Position numbers and translations under genes: made by a program
NCBI RefSeq assembly: GCF_008365315.1
Contig: NZ_CP043506.1
Span: 2,276,001-2,340,000, forward strand
DNA from: Acetobacter vaccinii
Lineage (GTDB): Bacteria; Pseudomonadota; Alphaproteobacteria; Acetobacterales; Acetobacteraceae
Direction: 5' to 3'
DNA: 64,000 nt
Shown here: in pieces, positions 56,815 through 64,000 of the stretch
Numbering within the stretch: position 1 is the first letter of the stretch
How the letters are laid out: every line of letters begins with the position of its first letter
Notes under the pieces: model-generated
Databases searched by the model: none
The model's input: only the letters and a program-made list of their open reading frames with translations
Told to the model about the DNA's origin: nothing

Positions 56815-57609
56815 TCAGGCAGGCGGGAAATTTTGGGTTCTGGCAATATCTTCTGCCAACAGGACGTCGGAGGGCTTGTCCACATCCACCGCAGCCCGAC
56901 CATCGGATAAGGGCACAAGCTGTGCTCTGGCCCCGGTGCGAGCAAAAATATGTTTGTAGAGTGCTTTGGAGCTTAACAGACCCAGCACAGCACGCAGCAG
57001 CACACCAGGCCCGAGCGTCCAGGCGACACGCAGGGGGCGCTTGCGGTTTTTTTCAACAGAACACCAGAGCGACGCGACGCGGGCAGAAACGGGTGTGCGG
57101 AAAAGAAAGAGGTTACAGCCGGAAAAAACCATGTCCGTCAGGCGGATATAGGTCCGCTTGGTGTTGGGCACAGCCTGACGGATCGCACTTTCAAGCGCCA
57201 CAGCGGCGGCAATGTCACGATCGGGTGCAATAGTTTGCAGAAACTCCTCAACCCATGCGGGTTGTAGCAGGGCATTGTCCGCAGTGGTGACAAGCAGGGG
57301 TGTGCCAAACTGTTCCAGACCGGCTAGCACGCTGGCGCTGGGGCCATCGGCCTGTGCGGGCAGGACCAGCACATCGGCGGGTAGAATGCACGCCAGCGAA
57401 TCGGGGTTGGAGGCGCAGACAACAATACGGCCGACTGCGGGAACAGCCTTGAGGCAGGTAACCACACGCAGCAGCATGGGAACACCCGCGATGGGGAGGA
57501 GTGCTTTGTGGGCAACGCCCCCCGCAACCGCTACGGGGTCTGGGGTGCCGGGCCGCTCACCTGCCAGCACCAGGGCGGTTAAGCCCTGCGGATGGGCGGG
57601 AGTATTCAC
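56815..57609 (-). CDS. MobA-like nucleotidyltransferase family protein in the sphingolipid locus
   Basis: A 264-residue NTP-transferase-fold protein. The nucleotide loop is LVLAGERPG (residues 13-21) with Lys35 in HKALLPIAGVPML, and the metal Asp is in TTADNALL (near 111). The C-terminal part (from SLWCSVEKNRKRPL) is unlike MobA or sugar-nucleotide enzymes. It overlaps the membrane hydroxylase gene by 4 bp, so the two are cotranscribed. From its place beside a lipid kinase and serine palmitoyltransferase I infer activation of a head-group precursor, analogous to the phosphoglycerate cytidylyltransferase reported for Caulobacter ceramide phosphoglycerate. The substrate is not shown. Confidence 0.75.
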   Translation of the reverse strand: MNTPAHPQGLTALVLAGERPGTPDPVAVAGGVAHKALLPIAGVPMLLRVVTCLKAVPAVGRIVVCASNPDSLACILPADVLVLPAQADGPSASVLAGLEQFGTPLLVTTADNALLQPAWVEEFLQTIAPDRDIAAAVALESAIRQAVPNTKRTYIRLTDMVFSGCNLFLFRTPVSARVASLWCSVEKNRKRPLRVAWTLGPGVLLRAVLGLLSSKALYKHIFARTGARAQLVPLSDGRAAVDVDKPSDVLLAEDIARTQNFPPA

Positions 57610-58388
57610 GCCGGACGGCGGCTATCGGGGCGGGCACCATCGGGGCGGTCACGCGGGGGGGCCCCTGTCAGGCGCATCACCCACGGGTAACGGTCTGCGG
57701 CTTTGAGGTCGTAACCGAGGTTGAACACCGTGGGGCTGCGCGGACGGGCTTTGGCATCAGCGTAGTAGGACCCAAAAACACGGTCCACGACAAAGCTTGT
57801 AATGCCGTAATTGCCATCTTCATCATGGAAGTGGTGCAGGACATGCCGGGCTTTCATGCGCTGGATCCAGGCCGAGCGGGGCTTGTAGTTCAGATGCTGG
57901 ATGCAGTGAAAAAACTCGTAGATGCAGGTAATGGTAATGCCCGTGCAAACCCCGGTGAAGGCTGCCCCGATACCACCGATCAGATACCCGATAGGTGCTG
58001 TGATAAGGATGATGGTGGGTAGTGTCGTTGCGGGCGACCCAAACAGGACATCCAGCAAGTGCGGGTCCTGATGATGGTCAAAGTGGATGCGCTTCCAGAG
58101 GGAGGATGTCCATTTGTTCTTGTACAGCAGGTGTCCGTGCAGCACGTAACGGTGCAGCAGATACCAGGCCAGCGGATACACTACGATCACGGCCAGAGCA
58201 GTCAGCAGGGTTACTGTCCAACCTGCGAAGAAGAGGCACACCCCGATAAAGCTTGCGGCAATCAGCGCAAAATACAGCAAGATCGTAGGGTAGGTCAGAT
58301 AGGCCACCCAGAGCTGCTGAAGGTTCATTTTGCCGAGGTCAAAACTGCGACCAGTCTTAAGGGAGGCGTTATTTAGTGTTCCACTCAT
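57606..58388 (-). CDS. Fatty acid hydroxylase superfamily membrane protein (probable ceramide hydroxylase)
   Basis: A 260-residue integral membrane di-iron enzyme. The histidine boxes are HRYVLH (79-84), HFDHHQDPH (102-110), HCIQH (161-165) and HVLHHFH (182-188), with four hydrophobic segments around them. This is the sterol desaturase / fatty acid hydroxylase superfamily. Acetic acid bacteria carry hydroxylated ceramides, so hydroxylation of the sphingoid base or acyl chain is the best inference. The last 20 residues are basic and proline-rich. The start ATG at 58388 is at the edge of a 430 bp gene-free stretch that must hold the promoter. Confidence 0.85.
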   Translation of the reverse strand: MSGTLNNASLKTGRSFDLGKMNLQQLWVAYLTYPTILLYFALIAASFIGVCLFFAGWTVTLLTALAVIVVYPLAWYLLHRYVLHGHLLYKNKWTSSLWKRIHFDHHQDPHLLDVLFGSPATTLPTIILITAPIGYLIGGIGAAFTGVCTGITITCIYEFFHCIQHLNYKPRSAWIQRMKARHVLHHFHDEDGNYGITSFVVDRVFGSYYADAKARPRSPTVFNLGYDLKAADRYPWVMRLTGAPPRDRPDGARPDSRRPA

Positions 58389-58818
58389 CGTGTTTTATTC
58401 CTCAGGAGCACGCTCAGGCCTCCCCGCGTAAAAGTAACCAGTCCGGTGAGTGTCACGACCGGAGGGGGAAGAAACCCTGAAATGCCCGTGGTTCCTAACA
58501 GGCCATACATCAGGATGGAGGGTAGCCTGACCGCACACGCTCAGCCTGTTACCCGCATCGTATATCCGCTTGGGCAGGAATATAGGTTGCCAGCATGGCA
58601 AGCAACAGGAGAACGTGTGGCAAAAGTGAGCACCGTGGCTTGGACGGCAGCTTCTCGGCCATGGTGAAAGGGGGCCGCAGAGAAGAAAGCGGCACGAAGA
58701 AAGTCGGATGCGACACTAAGTGCATAACACTCATGTATGGGATGCATACTCTCTGACAACCCATCTGCCTGCATGATGGCGCAGGCGGACGGGCTGCGAC
58801 TCTTGGGTGGCTTTTCTG
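58389..58818. other. Gene-free region between the hydroxylase and phosphoesterase genes
   Basis: About 430 bp without a credible gene on either strand; the ORFs present are short, without ribosome sites or recognisable products. It contains the upstream region of the hydroxylase-nucleotidyltransferase pair and a 6 bp stem (GCCTGC 58767-58772 with GCAGGC 58781-58786) after the phosphoesterase stop, with no T-run. I see no tRNA or IS trace. A small RNA cannot be excluded. Confidence 0.5.
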
Positions 58819-59724
58819 TCAGCCGTCGGAGGCTTCTGGCCGAGGTCTTGTGAAAATATGGGAGCTTCCGTGTGCGTGCATCTGGCCATTGGCAGCCAGA
58901 GCCCGCCTTTGCACTGTAATCCTCCAGCTTTTGGTTTGCGGCTCAATGTCGATGCAGTTCCATCCCGCAGCTTTTTCAGGACTGTCCGGGATATGAGATG
59001 CAGAGGTTGTGCCGATAACGGGAATATCTGTCCCCGGGATGGTTGTTGTTGTTGCCCGGTGGGAATGTCCATGCAGCACAAGCTCAGCCCCGGTATTGCG
59101 CAGCACATCCTGCAGGGCTTCCAGGTCGGTCAACGCCTTTCTGTCCTGCACCATGTGGCGGAGGGGCGGGTGGTGCAGCAGCACGACACGGCACAGGCCT
59201 GCGGCCCTTGTTGTCTCAAGGCAGTCTGCCAGTCGACTGAGCTGGAGCAGGCCTGTGCGGCCCGTTGCAAAAAACGGGAGCGATGGCACAGCCGTATTCA
59301 GCCCGATCAGGGCAACGCCTTTGTCCACCAGCAGGGGCGGATGGTTCTGGCTGGTGTCCTGGTGCAGCCAGGGGGCCCAGATTTCTTCTTTTGCGGCACT
59401 GCTTTCGCGCACGACAGCTTCGTGGTTGCCGGGCACAAGCAGGGTCGGGGGTAGGTTTTGGTCCTGTAGCCAACGGCGGGCCTGAAGGAACTCTGACAGC
59501 AGCCCGAGGTTAGTGAGGTCACCTGTCAGAGCGACAAGGTCGGGATGGGTGCTATGAATGTCGCGCATGACTGCGCAAAGAGGGGCCCATTTGTGCAGCT
59601 GCCGACGGTTCAGCCCCCATGACAGCAGGCTGAGGATGCGTTTGAAGCGGACCTCGCGCAAATGGGGTAAGGCTGGGAGTGGAAGATGAGGGTCTGAGAA
59701 ATGAGCAAGCCGGAGACAGGACAA
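58819..59724 (-). CDS. Calcineurin-like metallophosphoesterase
   Basis: A 301-residue phosphoesterase with the full metal-binding set: DPH (11-13), GDLTN (68-72), GNHE (99-102), HHPP (184-187) and HGHSH (218-222). The length fits the cyclic-phosphodiesterase/UDP-sugar hydrolase-like group, but the substrate is unknown. No membrane segment is seen. The start appears to be TTG at 59724, decided by GGAAGGGAG 8 nt upstream. It is divergent from the lipid kinase and stands inside the sphingolipid neighbourhood, so dephosphorylation of a lipid intermediate is possible but unproven. Confidence 0.88.
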   Translation of the reverse strand: MSCLRLAHFSDPHLPLPALPHLREVRFKRILSLLSWGLNRRQLHKWAPLCAVMRDIHSTHPDLVALTGDLTNLGLLSEFLQARRWLQDQNLPPTLLVPGNHEAVVRESSAAKEEIWAPWLHQDTSQNHPPLLVDKGVALIGLNTAVPSLPFFATGRTGLLQLSRLADCLETTRAAGLCRVVLLHHPPLRHMVQDRKALTDLEALQDVLRNTGAELVLHGHSHRATTTTIPGTDIPVIGTTSASHIPDSPEKAAGWNCIDIEPQTKSWRITVQRRALAANGQMHAHGSSHIFTRPRPEASDG

Positions 59725-59786
59725 AAGAACACTCCCTTCCGCAGTGGGCAGTATGGCGTATCAGAACTGCGATGAAGTATCGATAT

Positions 59787-59815
59787 GTGACAATTTTATG
59801 AGGTCTGCGTATATC
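59787..59815 (+). promoter_or_regulatory. Candidate promoter of the lipid kinase and Tam41-like pair
   Basis: GTGACA (59787-59792), 17 nt spacer, TATATC (59810-59815). The -35 is 5/6 and the -10 is 4/6 of consensus. Transcription from here would begin after the upstream in-frame ATGs and favours the GTG start at 59876. Confidence 0.45.
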
Positions 59816-59875
59816 AGCGAATCAGTGTCGGAGCGAATATCCGGCATATACACACCCAGCAGCCAAGGCAGCCTA

Positions 59876-60859
59876 GTGTCGGATCGTTTTGCACTTATCC
59901 ATAATCCGCGTAGCCGTCGCAATCTTAAGGTCGACGCACAGTATATGGATATGCTTGCCGCTATGCCGGACCATGTCCTCCATATTCCCCAGACTCACGA
60001 CGATCTGCAACGCACGCTCGATGCGCTGGCGCGCGATCCGGTGGCCTGTCTTGTGGTGGATGGTGGCGATGGCACCGTATGCAGTGTGCTCAGCGCACTG
60101 AATGCATCGGCCTGGCCACGAGATTCGTGGCCCCTCATCGTTGTGCTGCCATCCGGCAACACCAATCTGATTGCATCGGATGTCGGCTTTGCAAGCCGGG
60201 GGGTCAAAGCGCTTGATCTTGTGCAGGACCGTTTGCGCGCATGGCGTGCGGGAACAGCTAAGGTGAGCGTGCGTCGGCCGCTGCTTGTGTCCTGCCAGCA
60301 GGACAAGGGGCGGGATCTGTTGGGCTTTTTTGGTGGCTTTGGGGCGTTTACCCACGGGGTCGGCATTGCCCACCAGCCGACCATTCTTTCCCACTGTTCC
60401 CACGACGCCGCAGTGTTGGTGACATTGCTGGTGGCTTTTGCCCAGATGCTCAGCCCGACACGGCGGCAAAGCTGGCTTGAAGGGGTGGAAGCCCTGATCA
60501 GTGCCGATGGCGTCACCAGCCTTGGGCGGTCCCATTTTATGCTGCTGTGCACGGCGCTGCATAGCTTGCCCCATGGAGTCTGGCCGTTCTGGAGCAAGAA
60601 TGGTGTTGCGCACAAAGGGGTCAGTTACCTTGATGTTGCAGCCATGCCCGAGCGTCTGTTCGCAGCATGCTGGCATCTTTTGCGTGGGCGCGTGCCTGAG
60701 TGGCTCCGCCGCTCGTCGGCTTATAAAAGTGGCAATGCGGAAATTTTGACTGTTTGCACCAACCAACCCTTCGTTCTGGATGGTGAGATTATCCAGCCTG
60801 CCGAGAATGACTGCCTGACTGTCAAAGCCGGGCCTGAAGTCTCTTTCCTGCGGGTATGA
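59876..60859 (+). CDS. Diacylglycerol/ceramide kinase-like lipid kinase
   Basis: A ~327-residue DAGK-catalytic-domain protein. The N-terminal strand FALIHNPRSRRN is the usual opening of the family, the glycine-rich ATP loop is VVDGGDGTVCS (GGDGT at 63-67), and LPSGNTNLIASDVG (91-104) is the second motif. A beta-rich second domain ends in VLDGEIIQ. Known relatives phosphorylate diacylglycerol, sphingosine or ceramide; beside serine palmitoyltransferase, ceramide is the likely substrate (inference, cf. the ceramide kinase of Caulobacter). The GTG at 59876 follows AAGG and matches the family start; in-frame starts at 59744, 59753 and 59798 are open but would add a tail without similarity. It overlaps the next gene by 4 bp. 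Confidence 0.85.
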   Translation: MSDRFALIHNPRSRRNLKVDAQYMDMLAAMPDHVLHIPQTHDDLQRTLDALARDPVACLVVDGGDGTVCSVLSALNASAWPRDSWPLIVVLPSGNTNLIASDVGFASRGVKALDLVQDRLRAWRAGTAKVSVRRPLLVSCQQDKGRDLLGFFGGFGAFTHGVGIAHQPTILSHCSHDAAVLVTLLVAFAQMLSPTRRQSWLEGVEALISADGVTSLGRSHFMLLCTALHSLPHGVWPFWSKNGVAHKGVSYLDVAAMPERLFAACWHLLRGRVPEWLRRSSAYKSGNAEILTVCTNQPFVLDGEIIQPAENDCLTVKAGPEVSFLRV

Positions 60860-61836
60860 TGGCACAGACCTCGCACTCCCAAACGACGTCTGGTGCGCAA
60901 GCTTATGCCGCAGTTGCTCAATGGGTGTCGCAGGAGCTCCAGCAACCGGTACAGCCTGATATTACAGCATTTGTCAGGCAGATTTTGAACAGCGCCAACC
61001 CATTAGGCGTGTTGTTCTACGGTTCAGGACTTCGCGGAGGGGTGGATGCGGACACCCTGTTGGATTTCTATATTGTTGTGGACAAACAACGGGATTGGCC
61101 CAGATCGTGGCTATCTGCCGCATGCAATGCGCTGCTGCCCCCGAATGTTGAATATCATGAGTATCAGCAGGGCACGCACACCATGCGTGCCAAAGTGGCT
61201 GTTCTTTCTCTGGCACAGTTCAGGCAACTGACAGGCCAGCAGACCTACGATACCACAGTATGGGCGCGCTTTTCCCAGCCAGCGCGGCTGGTCTGGGTCA
61301 GGAACGAGGCGGCTGCTCAGGCTGTCAGCGCGTGTGTTGCCCGGGCCTGTGTGACAGCGGCCCGGTGGGCGGCTCTATTAGGTCCACAGCAAGGGCAGGC
61401 TCGTAGATTCTGGGACACACTCTATCGTCAGACCTATGGTGCAGAACTGCGGGTAGAACGGCAGGGAAGACCGCAAAGCCTCGTTGAGAAAGACCCAGGC
61501 CGGTACGAAAGCCTGCTACTGCCATGTTGGCAGGCGGCAGGGATCGACTGGTCCGCTCAGGGTGATGTTATCAGCCCAGCCCTGAGCGTGAGTGACCGTG
61601 CAAAAGGGCAGAAACGCTGGGCGTTGTGTAAAGCCCTGGGGCGGCCCCTTAACATGATACGGCTGTTAAAAGCGGCCTACACATTTACAGGTGCAGCCCG
61701 TTATGCAGCATGGAAAGTACAGCGGCATAGTGGGCTGGAAATAACGGTAACACCGTTTGCGGAAAAACATCCGCTGCTGGCCGCGCCGCCAGTGCTTTGG
61801 TCACTGTGGCGGCGCGGAGCATTCACACGGCATTAG
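60856..61836 (+). CDS. Tam41/Mmp37-like nucleotidyltransferase, candidate lipid cytidylyltransferase
   Basis: A 326-residue protein. Its N-terminal third resembles the mitochondrial CDP-diacylglycerol synthase Tam41: a nucleotidyltransferase loop GVLFYGSGLRGGVDADTLLDFYIVVD (YGSG at 55-58, Asp70 and Asp76 as likely metal ligands), then a conserved Trp-rich stretch, NVEYHEY and RAKVAVLSLAQF, and WARFSQPARLVW, matching the order of Tam41 motifs. It starts in the ATGA overlap with the lipid kinase, a strong sign of a shared pathway. I infer that it activates the phospholipid product of the kinase, for example ceramide-phosphate to CDP-ceramide, or acts on phosphatidate. Neither activity is demonstrated. 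Its stop overlaps the convergent serine palmitoyltransferase stop. Confidence 0.6.
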   Translation: MMAQTSHSQTTSGAQAYAAVAQWVSQELQQPVQPDITAFVRQILNSANPLGVLFYGSGLRGGVDADTLLDFYIVVDKQRDWPRSWLSAACNALLPPNVEYHEYQQGTHTMRAKVAVLSLAQFRQLTGQQTYDTTVWARFSQPARLVWVRNEAAAQAVSACVARACVTAARWAALLGPQQGQARRFWDTLYRQTYGAELRVERQGRPQSLVEKDPGRYESLLLPCWQAAGIDWSAQGDVISPALSVSDRAKGQKRWALCKALGRPLNMIRLLKAAYTFTGAARYAAWKVQRHSGLEITVTPFAEKHPLLAAPPVLWSLWRRGAFTRH

Positions 61837-63038
61837 CGTGCGCCGTGGACACCTGCTTTGGTGGCGGCCTGGCGGAAAATCTCAACAGCCTTATCAATCT
61901 GCTGCGCTGTGTGCGTTGCCATGACAGAGCAGCGCAGCAGGGGGCGTGAATCCGGCGTTGCAGGCGGCAGGCTCAGGTTGACGTAAACCCCAAGGTCCAG
62001 CAGGTAATTCCACATGGGAATGGCCTGTTCCTCGGTTTCCAGCGTAACCGCAATGACCGGGCTGACCTGCTTGCTGGCATTCAGGCCGATTTTGACAAAA
62101 CCGGCATGCAGCCGTGCGGCATTATCCATCAACTGCGTGCGCAGTTCAGGATGGGCCTGCATGTCTTCCAAAGCGGCTGTCGTTGCTGCAATAATTTCCG
62201 GCGGCAAGGAGGCTGTAAACATGTAGGGACGGCAGTTAAGCCGCAGCAGTTCCAGCTCCGGATGGTCAGAGACGCAGTAGCCACCTACCGTGCCAAGGCT
62301 TTTGGAGAACGTGCCAACAACAAAATCGACATCCTGCTCCACGCCTGCGGCCTCTGCCGCACCCCGGCCGTTGTCACCCAGAACACCGAAGGAATGGGCT
62401 TCATCGACTAGCAGGTAAGAGCCGGTTTCCTTTTTGACGGCAACAAACTCAGCCACAGGGGCTACGTTGCCTGTCATGGAATAAATACCTTCCACAACAA
62501 TCAGTTTGGCTCGGTCCGGGGCATCCAGCCTGCGGATACGCTTGTACAGGTCGTCCGGGTCATTATGCCTGAAGCGGATAACCTGTGCGGCACTCAGGCG
62601 GCTGCCATCGTAAATGCTGGCATGGCTGTCAGCGTCAAGGATCAGGTAGTCATCCTTGCCTGCCAGAGCCGAGATCATGCCAAGGTTGGCTTGGTACCCG
62701 GTGGAAAATACCATGGCATCACGCCGCCCGAAAAAGCGGGCAATCTGGCCTTCAAGCTGCCGGTGCAGGGACTGGGTGCCATTGGCAATGCGCGAGCCTG
62801 TCGTGCCAACACCACAGGCGGCGGCGGCATCCTGCGCGGCCTTGATCGCACGCGGGGACTGGCTGAGGCCAAGGTAGTTATTGGTGCCAAACAGCAGGGT
62901 TTCCCGGCCCTCGATCACACCAACGGTGGAGGAAACCGGCTTTTCGATAATGACCGAGAAGGGGTTGCGACCACCTGCGGCCACAACCGAACCGAGAGCA
63001 CTGGCAATGCCTTCGTATTTGGAAAACAGTGAGGCCAT
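61833..63038 (-). CDS. spt: Serine palmitoyltransferase
   Basis: A 401-residue PLP enzyme of the alpha-oxoamine synthase family. The stacking His is in DADSHASIYDG (His139), the Asp and His of VDEAHSFG (212-215) bind the cofactor, and the Schiff-base Lys is Lys246 in GTFSKSLG. Sequence and the adjacent acyl carrier protein indicate Spt rather than BioF or KBL. It condenses serine with a fatty acyl group to 3-ketosphinganine, the first step of sphingolipid synthesis. It lies 6 bp after the acp gene, with no terminator behind it. Confidence 0.92.
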   Translation of the reverse strand: MASLFSKYEGIASALGSVVAAGGRNPFSVIIEKPVSSTVGVIEGRETLLFGTNNYLGLSQSPRAIKAAQDAAAACGVGTTGSRIANGTQSLHRQLEGQIARFFGRRDAMVFSTGYQANLGMISALAGKDDYLILDADSHASIYDGSRLSAAQVIRFRHNDPDDLYKRIRRLDAPDRAKLIVVEGIYSMTGNVAPVAEFVAVKKETGSYLLVDEAHSFGVLGDNGRGAAEAAGVEQDVDFVVGTFSKSLGTVGGYCVSDHPELELLRLNCRPYMFTASLPPEIIAATTAALEDMQAHPELRTQLMDNAARLHAGFVKIGLNASKQVSPVIAVTLETEEQAIPMWNYLLDLGVYVNLSLPPATPDSRPLLRCSVMATHTAQQIDKAVEIFRQAATKAGVHGAR

Positions 63039-63044
63039 GCGGTC

Positions 63045-63296
63045 TTACCCTCGGTTTTTCAGATCGACGATGCAGGAGGCAAGATCATTGATCGTGCGGA
63101 TATCAGCCAGCTTGTCCAGCGGGACAGAAACATCGAGGCTGTCTTCCACTTCCATGACAAAATTCATGACCGCCAGAGAATCAAAGGCAAGGTCTTCCAT
63201 GATCTTGCAGTTGCCATCGATGTTCCGGGGAACCTTCGGGTTGGCGAGCAGCTTTTGGATGATCAGCGCGGAAACGCCTTCAACGGTTTCGCTCAT
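63045..63296 (-). CDS. Acyl carrier protein dedicated to sphingolipid synthesis
   Basis: An 83-residue carrier protein with the phosphopantetheine site AFDSLAVMNF (Ser40), acidic helix VMEVEDSLDVSVPLDKL, and typical length. It is distinct from a housekeeping AcpP by the IMEDLAFDSLAVM sequence and by location directly in front of serine palmitoyltransferase, and would present the acyl thioester to that enzyme. The ATG at 63296 is chosen, as the frame upstream overlaps the intergenic region with a terminator. Confidence 0.92.
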   Translation of the reverse strand: MSETVEGVSALIIQKLLANPKVPRNIDGNCKIMEDLAFDSLAVMNFVMEVEDSLDVSVPLDKLADIRTINDLASCIVDLKNRG

Positions 63297-63368
63297 GTCG
63301 GATCTTTCATTTCTGTCAGGCATCAAGGCACATCAGGTCTTTGCCCATTTAAAGACGCCTTATGGGAG

Positions 63369-63428: not shown

Positions 63429-64000
63429 TCAGGCTACTTCCTGTTCCTGCGTGAACAGGCCGTTCAGGTACATGGCGCGTGCCTTGGCCCGTGTCAGTTT
63501 GCCAGAGGATGTCTGGGGCAGTGTGTGGGGCGGGACCAGCACGACAGACACCTCAACCCCATGTAACCGGCGGAAGAGGCTGACAGCCTCGGCCCGCAGG
63601 TTTTCACGCACAACCGGGTCGGAGGCACGGCACTGGATCAGTGCCACAACCTCTTCATGGTCACCTGTCTCAAGCGAGAACACAGCAACATCACGGCTGC
63701 GCAGGGCAGGGATATGGGTTTCAGCCGACCATTCCAGATCCTGCGGCCAGATATTGCGACCGTTGATGATGATAAGGTCTTTGGCACGCCCGGTTACAAC
63801 AACCTGGCCATCCAGCATGTAACCAAGGTCACCCGTGTCCAGCCAGCCATTGCTGTCCAGAACCTTGCTGGTTTCCTCATCCATGCGGAAATAGCCGTTC
63901 ATCAGGCTGGGGCCGCGCACATAGATGGTGCCGATTTCACGGTCCTTCAGGGGGGTGCCCATCGGGTCACGCACTTCCAGACCATGGCCGGGCAGCACCT
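63429..64000 (-). CDS. Acyl-CoA/acyl-ACP ligase, C-terminal part (start beyond window)
   Basis: The last ~190 residues of an AMP-forming ligase; the rest lies past the window's right end. It shows GTIYVRGPSLMNGYFR, GWLDTGDLGYM, the hinge GRAKDLIIINGRNIWPQDLE and the C-terminal catalytic Lys in TSSGKLTRAKARA. Enzymes of this kind charge fatty acids onto ACP or CoA. Beside the dedicated ACP and serine palmitoyltransferase it most likely loads the acyl chain onto that ACP, as in the Caulobacter sphingolipid locus; this is inferred. Confidence 0.9.
   Translation of the reverse strand, partial: VLPGHGLEVRDPMGTPLKDREIGTIYVRGPSLMNGYFRMDEETSKVLDSNGWLDTGDLGYMLDGQVVVTGRAKDLIIINGRNIWPQDLEWSAETHIPALRSRDVAVFSLETGDHEEVVALIQCRASDPVVRENLRAEAVSLFRRLHGVEVSVVLVPPHTLPQTSSGKLTRAKARAMYLNGLFTQEQEVA

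What the first reader, a model, noticed from the sequence alone, without database searches (positions are those of the whole stretch)
56815..63296. A ceramide head-group module around serine palmitoyltransferase
Within 7 kb lie spt, its ACP, an acyl ligase end, a membrane hydroxylase, a MobA-like nucleotidyltransferase, a DAGK/ceramide-kinase-like enzyme, a Tam41-like nucleotidyltransferase and a metallophosphoesterase. Two nucleotidyltransferases plus a lipid kinase suggest a phosphodiester-linked head group on a hydroxylated ceramide, reminiscent of but not the same as the Caulobacter ceramide phosphoglycerate genes. I know of no described pathway combining these families in acetic acid bacteria.
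Basis: partly seen in the sequence, partly recalled or inferred. Interest (0 to 1): 0.8.

Follow-up and report, generated by a model that had tools for sequence, protein, structure and literature searches.

The report
Reduced ceramide-phosphate head-group gene cluster
Vinegar bacteria carry a cut-down relative of the Caulobacter gene set that puts a charged phosphate head group on ceramide, apparently with a teichoic-acid-type enzyme in place of two Caulobacter steps.

Summary
In detail: all eight named genes are in the window at the stated places (the acyl ligase only as its end). They form a conserved unit: of 54 sampled Acetobacteraceae genomes with the Tam41-like gene, 53 also have spt, and 47 of those 53 have the two within 3 kb. 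The interpretation (a phosphodiester head group on hydroxylated ceramide) is likely right, but "not the same as Caulobacter" is only half right. Related alphaproteobacterial clusters closely follow the gene order published for the Caulobacter ceramide-phosphoglycerate (CPG) region. The Acetobacter cluster is that region's core: lipid kinase, Tam41-fold enzyme, MobA-like nucleotidyltransferase, phosphoesterase. It lacks the CpgA + CpgD pair implicated in the second phosphoglycerate. That pair occurs together in six of 200 family genomes, not in this one. Instead, a TagF-like-fold gene heads the spt operon just outside the window; all 38 family genomes where it was found carry the Tam41-like gene. 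The window strain has also lost the cluster's LptF2/LptG2 genes, keeping a 43-codon remnant. Best reading: a new variant of the CPG pathway, via CDP-ceramide, ending in a shorter or differently extended anionic ceramide. The head group is not shown. Caulobacter proteins themselves were not compared.

The parts
56815..57609 (-). MobA-like / cytidylyltransferase-type nucleotidyltransferase (264 aa), in the relative position of Caulobacter CC_1153; overlaps the hydroxylase gene by 4 bp
   Evidence: Pfam NTP_transf_3 57.5 bits; CTP_transf_3 in 10 and IspD in 8 of 15 homologues at E 0.01, no CofC hit; PDB profile hits TTHA0179 (134 bits), then IspD, GlmU and KDO cytidylyltransferases
57606..58388 (-). 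membrane fatty-acid/ceramide hydroxylase (FA_hydroxylase, 260 aa)
   Evidence: PF04116 71.7 bits; in 27 of 30 Acetobacteraceae and 12 of 20 other alphaproteobacterial Tam41-like loci
58388..58516 (-). 43-codon C-terminal remnant of LptG2; LptF2 and the rest of LptG2 are missing from this locus
   Evidence: tblastn 49% identity over 43 aa, E 2.7e-10, to LptG2 of same-genus L019, 47% to L020; LptF/LptG in 28 of 30 family loci, one of the two exceptions being this one
58819..59724 (-). calcineurin-like metallophosphoesterase (301 aa; start codon uncertain), the family given for Caulobacter CC_1158
   Evidence: PF00149 52.1 bits; DxH, GDxxN, GNH, HH and GHxH positions invariant in 15 homologues
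59744..60859 (+). lipid kinase of the DAGK family, candidate ceramide kinase (CpgB-like); true start probably the GTG at 59876
   Evidence: PF00781 38.6 bits; GDGT invariant in 15 homologues, and several relatives start at the position of residue 45, a GTG in the window; same-strand neighbour of the Tam41-like gene in 30 of 30 family loci
60856..61836 (+). Tam41-fold nucleotidyltransferase, candidate CTP:ceramide-1-phosphate cytidylyltransferase (CpgC-like); 4 bp overlap with the kinase gene
61833..63038 (-). serine palmitoyltransferase (spt), convergent with the Tam41-like gene and overlapping it by 4 bp
   Evidence: NF047599 622 bits, cut-off 500
63045..63326 (-). acyl carrier protein of the spt operon (AcpR-like; start uncertain)
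   Evidence: PF00550 35.1 bits; present in each of the 26 family Tam41-like loci that show spt
63429..64000 (-). C-terminal part of the fatty acyl-AMP/ACP ligase (AasR-like); the gene continues to genome position 2341198, and upstream of it, at 2341195-2342328 (outside the window), lies a TagF-like-fold gene in the same orientation
   Evidence: NF006624 892 bits on the whole protein; L009:14429-16198 and L009:16195-17328; fold of the second protein

Best explanation
The locus is the Acetobacteraceae version of the Caulobacter ceramide-phosphoglycerate pathway, reduced to its core and probably extended by a different enzyme. Proposed course: the acyl ligase, ACP and spt make 3-oxo-sphinganine; a CerS-like enzyme coded elsewhere completes the ceramide and the hydroxylase hydroxylates it; the DAGK-type enzyme makes ceramide-1-phosphate; the Tam41-fold enzyme activates it with CTP to CDP-ceramide; a head-group alcohol displaces CMP, giving an anionic ceramide phosphodiester. 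The MobA-like enzyme makes a CDP-activated polyol phosphate (CDP-glycerate or a relative), and the TagF-like transferase coded upstream of the ligase adds that unit, in the role that CpgD + CpgA have in Caulobacter. The phosphoesterase trims or recycles an intermediate. In relatives LptF2/LptG2 carry the product outward. Shown by sequence and structure prediction: gene families, folds, conservation, linkage, absence of CpgA/CpgD, loss of LptF2/G2 in this strain. Inferred: every substrate and product, the reaction order, the nature of the polyol.
For: Nearly the same families in the same order as published for CC_1165-CC_1152 occur in other Alphaproteobacteria. Tam41 fold, a CDP-lipid synthase fold; the Caulobacter authors also suggested that CC_1161 might make an NDP-activated ceramide (PMC11324152). 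Kinase and Tam41-like genes are paired in 30 of 30 family loci and 18 of 20 others. CpgA occurs in 6 of 200 family genomes, all with the Tam41-like gene, and CpgD-like in the same six plus G075; neither in the window genome. The MobA-like gene stays in 25 of the 27 family loci without CpgA, the phosphoesterase in 26 of 27. The Caulobacter CC_1153 mutant piles up ceramide as well as CPG, which fits a role near the core. TagF-like protein: PF04464 in 7 of 11 homologues at E 0.1, best 1.8e-7; capsule polymerase (one form CMP-bound) and TagF rank first by Z (22.7-23.3); found in 38 of 200 family genomes, all 38 Tam41-like-positive, in 27 within 6 kb of spt; outside the family 7 of 8 carriers in the class sample are Tam41-like-positive. 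CerS-like gene in the own genome, 37% identical to the one at locus L047.
Against: No lipid data. Caulobacter proteins were not compared directly; orthology rests on family and gene order. CC_1153 is reported as CofC-like, but none of 15 MobA-like homologues hit a CofC model, so that pairing rests on position. In Caulobacter, CC_1153 and CC_1158 mutants still make CPG and fail or falter at CPG2, so if function is conserved these two act after CPG, and in genomes without CpgA/CpgD their role is unclear. Thirteen Tam41-like-positive genomes show neither CpgA nor the TagF-like gene, an upper bound because of masked stretches. By Foldseek E-value UDP-GlcNAc 2-epimerases outrank TagF for that model, by Z they are within 1 (22.3 against 23.3); the window genome's own copy gives no Pfam hit, and many sources name the family 'sensor domain-containing protein'. 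The own CerS-like protein has no Pfam hit. The window strain lost LptF2/LptG2, so its pathway may be decaying. The Acetobacter sphingolipid listed in a review table is ceramide (PMC10626005 passages).
Confidence: 0.6

Rival explanations
1. CDP-ceramide made by the Tam41-like enzyme is used by housekeeping CDP-alcohol transferases (PgsA or PssA), giving ceramide phosphoglycerol or phosphoserine/phosphoethanolamine; the phosphoesterase is then the phosphatase that finishes ceramide phosphoglycerol.
For: No CpgA-type CDP-alcohol transferase is left in this genome; the weak CpgA-profile match at C1:281932 (25 bits) may be a generic one (not examined further). The phosphoesterase is in 29 of 30 family loci. 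Genomes without CpgA and without a detected TagF-like gene need some transferase.
Against: Leaves the MobA-like enzyme without a role although it is present in 26 of 30 family loci and in the most reduced locus, L045, which lacks the phosphoesterase.
Confidence: 0.2
2. The cluster makes the same CPG2 as Caulobacter, with CpgA and CpgD replaced one for one by the TagF-like and the MobA-like enzymes.
For: The MobA-like protein resembles cytidylyltransferases, TagF-type enzymes use CDP-polyols (established knowledge; fold), and both lie at the locus.
Against: Three genomes have CpgA and the TagF-like gene together (G121, G138, G172), and L076 outside the family has both in one stretch, so they are not simple substitutes. 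Clusters with CpgA keep the MobA-like gene too, for example L064, L066, L068 and L076.
Confidence: 0.12
3. Kinase and Tam41-like enzyme act on glycerolipids (diacylglycerol recycling, CDP-diacylglycerol) and merely neighbour spt.
For: Tam41 is a CDP-diacylglycerol synthase and the kinase falls in the DAGK/YegS family.
Against: 53 of 54 genomes with the Tam41-like gene have spt, and 47 of 53 hold them within 3 kb; CC_1160, the kinase of the matching Caulobacter cluster, is reported as a ceramide kinase by enzyme assay (PMC10331486, passages seen).
Confidence: 0.06

Closest known systems
Caulobacter crescentus ceramide phosphoglycerate / diphosphoglycerate (CPG, CPG2) region CC_1168-CC_1152, cpgABC and cpgD
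   Same: spt with ACP and acyl ligase, DAGK-type kinase, CDP-DAG-synthase-type enzyme, a nucleotidyltransferase in the place of CC_1153, phosphoesterase; in relatives also an LptF/LptG pair
   Different: No CpgA and no CpgD in the window genome; the CerS-like gene is elsewhere and no CerR-like gene was seen at the locus; LptF2/LptG2 deleted in this strain; hydroxylase inside the cluster, while in Caulobacter the reported one is CC_0202; TagF-like gene heads the spt operon
Tam41, mitochondrial and bacterial CDP-diacylglycerol synthase
   Different: 13% sequence identity, no Pfam match; expected substrate ceramide-1-phosphate, not phosphatidic acid (inferred)
TagF/TarL-type CDP-glycerol or CDP-ribitol phosphotransferases (PF04464)
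   Different: 377 aa, sits in an spt operon, 12-13% identity; acceptor would be a ceramide lipid (inferred)
Gluconobacter oxydans aasR-acpR-spt operon GOX2058-GOX2056 (PMC9386255, section 13 read)
   Same: Same three sphingoid-base genes in an acetic acid bacterium
   Different: That section lists no head-group genes beside them

Membership tests
Caulobacter-type CPG pathway | ceramide kinase of the DAGK family (CpgB) | tested here: met
   DAGK_cat over cut-off, GDGT kept, neighbour of the Tam41-like gene in 30 of 30 family loci; substrate not tested
Caulobacter-type CPG pathway | CDP-DAG-synthase-type enzyme (CpgC) | tested here: met
   Tam41 fold; agrees with the CDP-DAG synthase InterPro domain reported for CC_1161
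Caulobacter-type CPG pathway | CDP-alcohol transferase CpgA | tested here: not met
   6 of 200 family genomes over 430 bits; window genome only a 25-bit match. The query is CpgA by position and by its CDP-alcohol transferase matches
Caulobacter-type CPG pathway | COG1213-type cytidylyltransferase CpgD | tested here: not met
   7 of 200 over 300 bits, window genome none at 1e-20; the query pair was chosen by neighbourhood (best PDB match CTP:phosphocholine cytidylyltransferase), not checked against CpgD itself
Caulobacter-type CPG pathway | CofC-like nucleotidyltransferase CC_1153 | tested here: inconclusive
   right position and NTP_transf_3 domain, but no CofC hit in 15 homologues
Caulobacter-type CPG pathway | second LptF/LptG pair at the locus | tested here: not met
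   Remnant only in the window, present in 28 of 30 family loci
Caulobacter-type CPG pathway | direct sequence orthology to Caulobacter proteins | not tested
   No Caulobacter Cpg sequence was obtained; none among the 80 loci kept
Caulobacter-type CPG pathway | product ceramide phosphoglycerate | not testable with these tools
   needs lipidomics
Tam41 CDP-diacylglycerol synthase | fold | tested here: met
Tam41 CDP-diacylglycerol synthase | sequence match to a Pfam family | tested here: not met
   no relevant hit up to E 5; the works-like claim rests on fold
PF04464 CDP-glycerol glycerophosphotransferase | profile match and TagF fold | tested here: inconclusive
   7 of 11 homologues match, the window genome's own copy does not; TagF is at the top by Z but epimerases are within 1 Z and lead by Foldseek E-value
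Serine palmitoyltransferase | curated equivalog score | tested here: met
   NF047599 622 over 500 bits
MobA-like / cytidylyltransferase | NTP_transf_3 domain | tested here: met
   57.5 over 27 bits, 15 of 15 homologues match; nucleotide and second substrate unknown

The most novel reading that the evidence does not exclude
Acetic acid bacteria build a teichoic-acid-like head group on ceramide: CDP-ceramide from a Tam41-fold enzyme gives the first phosphodiester, and a CDP-polyol from the MobA-like enzyme is added, once or repeatedly, by a TagF-type transferase that belongs to the spt operon and has tandem copies in some relatives.
Probability: 0.28. Interest if true: 0.8.

Novelty: new variant of a known kind. 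Interest (0 to 1): 0.55.

Why it matters
CPG2 helps Caulobacter survive without lipopolysaccharide (PMC12275187 abstract) and is the presumed polymyxin target there (PMC11324152 conclusions). A natural version lacking CpgA and CpgD separates the pathway into a core and an extension. It makes testable claims about the unsolved CpgC step (CDP-ceramide) and about CC_1153 and CC_1158, which the Caulobacter work places mainly at the second addition. It would also mean that food-fermenting Acetobacter, listed for ceramide, may make unrecognised anionic sphingolipids that bear on the cell envelope and on host contact.

Tried and rejected
Generic-lipid reading (DAGK and Tam41-like enzyme serving glycerophospholipids): rejected as main reading because of the tight link to spt.

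The gap between phosphoesterase and hydroxylase as a mere spacer: rejected; relatives code LptF and LptG there and the window keeps an LptG2 tail.

Relocation of LptF2/LptG2 within the genome: unresolved. The own genome has two LptF/G pairs. On the cluster profiles the pair at 2.035-2.037 Mb scores lower than the pair at 32-34 kb, which speaks against it being the cluster's pair. But its LptF finds, in each of 7 relatives, the cluster LptF as best match, at 25-33% identity, and only weakly the other kind. No close copy of this pair was found in those 7. Functional replacement stays open.

Retrieval of Caulobacter crescentus proteins: the genome-contig scan kept the best 80 loci, none titled Caulobacter; PDB profile searches showed no entry named as a Cpg protein, although PMC13228409 gives PDB codes for CpgD (passages). 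So no direct comparison.

CpgA by locus clustering: the neighbour clustering (and the u3 row) missed CpgA in L051, L052 and L054, and in L070, because of overlapping frames; corrected. One search is the count used for genomes.

TagF-like gene absent in small genomes: not trusted. G040 is negative, yet a hit named Commensalibacter nepenthis has the same longest-contig length as G040's first contig, and masked runs cover the expected place in L023, L032 and L042.

Literature, held open library only: 'CDP-ceramide' in 0 papers; 'ceramide phosphoglycerate' with 'Acetobacteraceae' in 0; 'phosphosphingolipid' with 'Acetobacter' in 3 reviews, listing seen only; 'ceramide' with 'Tam41' in 24, of which the 10 listed have no title on bacteria, listing only. 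Zik et al. 2022 was not among the 10 papers listed and was not read.

Rows dropped before counts: G098 from the Tam41-like set (44-residue match, E 6.6e-4); five spt hits of at most 240 bits. The Fisher values are not corrected for kinship, and its class table assumes that the sample holds no further members of the window's family; I quote none of them. Names CerS, CerR, CpgA and CpgD for loci outside Caulobacter are by position and family, not by comparison with Caulobacter.

On re-check I mended: the kinase start (59876), the statement on plasmid matches, the Foldseek order for the TagF-like model, the missing CofC hit, and the LptF comparison.


Full report
What is there. The window lies at G000:C1:2276001-2340000 of a 3.08-Mb genome. 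The genus is most likely Acetobacter: its genus-mate G117 has contigs of 11977 and 33149 bases, the lengths given for Acetobacter sp. AN02 proteins. Pieces of the two smaller contigs match plasmid records mostly named Acetobacter (28 of 46 and 58 of 126, the largest group in each), largely through mobile elements in the rows listed, a weak pointer. The genes are tightly packed: MobA-like and hydroxylase genes overlap by 4 bp, kinase and Tam41-like by 4 bp, and the Tam41-like gene and spt end in each other by 4 bp. Past the window's edge the acyl ligase completes and is preceded in the same orientation, with 4 bp overlap, by a 377-residue gene.

Conservation. In 200 Acetobacteraceae genomes (102 genera) the Tam41-like gene is found in 55, one of them only a fragment, and spt over 400 bits in 64. 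Fifty-three of 54 Tam41-like genomes have spt; in 47 of 53 they lie within 3 kb; 11 of 64 spt genomes lack the Tam41-like gene. In the 30 Acetobacteraceae loci read that hold it (of 41 read), kinase is present in 30, phosphoesterase in 29, LptF and LptG in 28 each, hydroxylase in 27 and MobA-like in 26, three of the four MobA-like gaps lying at stretch ends. In a sample of the class the Tam41-like gene is in 38 of 337 genomes, 33 of them outside the family.

Relation to Caulobacter. Loci from other Alphaproteobacteria, for example L064 and L068, read acyl ligase, CerR, ACP, spt, then Tam41-like, kinase, CpgA, then phosphoesterase, LptF, LptG, hydroxylase, CerS, MobA-like, with one or two further genes between (CerR and CerS named by position; CpgA profile matches CDP-alcohol transferases). 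Olea-Ozuna et al. 2024 (PMC11324152; sections 8, 9 and 13 read, section 8 in its first of two parts) give for CC_1165 to CC_1152: aasR, cerR, acpR, spt; CC_1161 with a CDP-DAG synthase domain; CC_1160 ceramide kinase; CC_1159 displacing CMP from a CDP-alcohol; CC_1158 phosphoesterase; CC_1157 thought unrelated; LptF2, LptG2; cerS; CC_1153 CofC-like nucleotidyltransferase; CC_1152 (CpgD). The match in family and order is close, hydroxylase aside. They propose that CC_1161 may make an NDP-activated ceramide, so that idea is not new here; the Tam41 fold supports it. Their survey of other bacteria names no Acetobacteraceae in the section I read. The paper on rhodobacterial AcpR (PMC9386255, section 13 read) lists aasR, acpR and spt of Gluconobacter oxydans without head-group genes.

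What is missing and what is added. CpgA is found in six of 200 family genomes and CpgD-like in the same six plus G075; the window genome has neither. They thus behave as one removable module. In the 27 family loci without CpgA the MobA-like gene is kept in 25 and the phosphoesterase in 26. Outside the family six loci (L069, L071, L072, L074, L075, L080) have the MobA-like gene without CpgA in the stretch read. The most reduced family locus, L045, keeps beside spt, ACP and ligase only kinase, Tam41-like, hydroxylase and MobA-like. So the MobA-like enzyme is tied to the core rather than to CpgA/CpgD. Caulobacter genetics is mixed on this: CC_1153 mutants make more CPG and no detectable CPG2, which places the enzyme after CPG, yet they also pile up ceramide; CC_1158 mutants make slightly more CPG and slightly less CPG2. 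Either the substrate differs in acetic acid bacteria or another extension uses these enzymes.

Strain-specific loss. Between phosphoesterase and hydroxylase, relatives including same-genus L019 and L020 code LptF and LptG. The window has about 430 bp there and a 43-codon LptG2 tail. The own genome has two other LptF/G pairs, of which the one at 2.03 Mb is not found closely in 7 relatives; whether it stands in is open.

Judgement. Confirmed observation, partly supported interpretation. The pathway type is known; the Acetobacter form is a new variant. The head group itself is not determined by these data.

Noticed in passing
window 58388-58818: Deletion of LptF2 and most of LptG2 in this strain, with an LptG2 tail left; same-genus L019, L020 and L022 keep both genes.
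   Followed up: yes
L168:8795-12030 (G000:C1 about 2.035-2.038 Mb): A further LptF_LptG pair next to an ABC ATPase gene. No close copy in 7 relatives searched; a possible substitute exporter or an unrelated glycan exporter.
   Followed up: partly
L169:9040-11940 (G000:C1 about 2.593-2.596 Mb): CerS-like gene divergent from a short-chain dehydrogenase, followed by an Asp_Arg_Hydrox (PF05118, 153.5 bits) gene. Possible ketosphinganine reductase and second acyl hydroxylase; functions inferred.
   Followed up: partly
G130:C85:34856-41048, G056:C41:1557-4704: Three and two TagF-like genes in a row near the ceramide locus, suggesting several additions.
   Followed up: no
L019:11952-13037 and 9 other Acetobacteraceae loci: A group-1 glycosyltransferase gene (PF00534) recurs in the Tam41-like stretches (10 of 30) and is absent from the window's locus.
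   Followed up: no
L047:12810-13415 and other loci: A small DUF2141 gene (PF09912) recurs in 5 of 30 family and 4 of 20 other loci, in L047 between phosphoesterase and LptF.
   Followed up: no
L009:17501-20000 and L020, L023, L029, L032, L034, L038, L042: Withheld (N) runs in or just beyond the spt operon; they hide neighbours and depress presence counts.
   Followed up: partly
window 59744-59876: The kinase frame starts early; several relatives start at the position of residue 45, a GTG at 59876, so the listed frame is probably 44 codons too long.
   Followed up: yes
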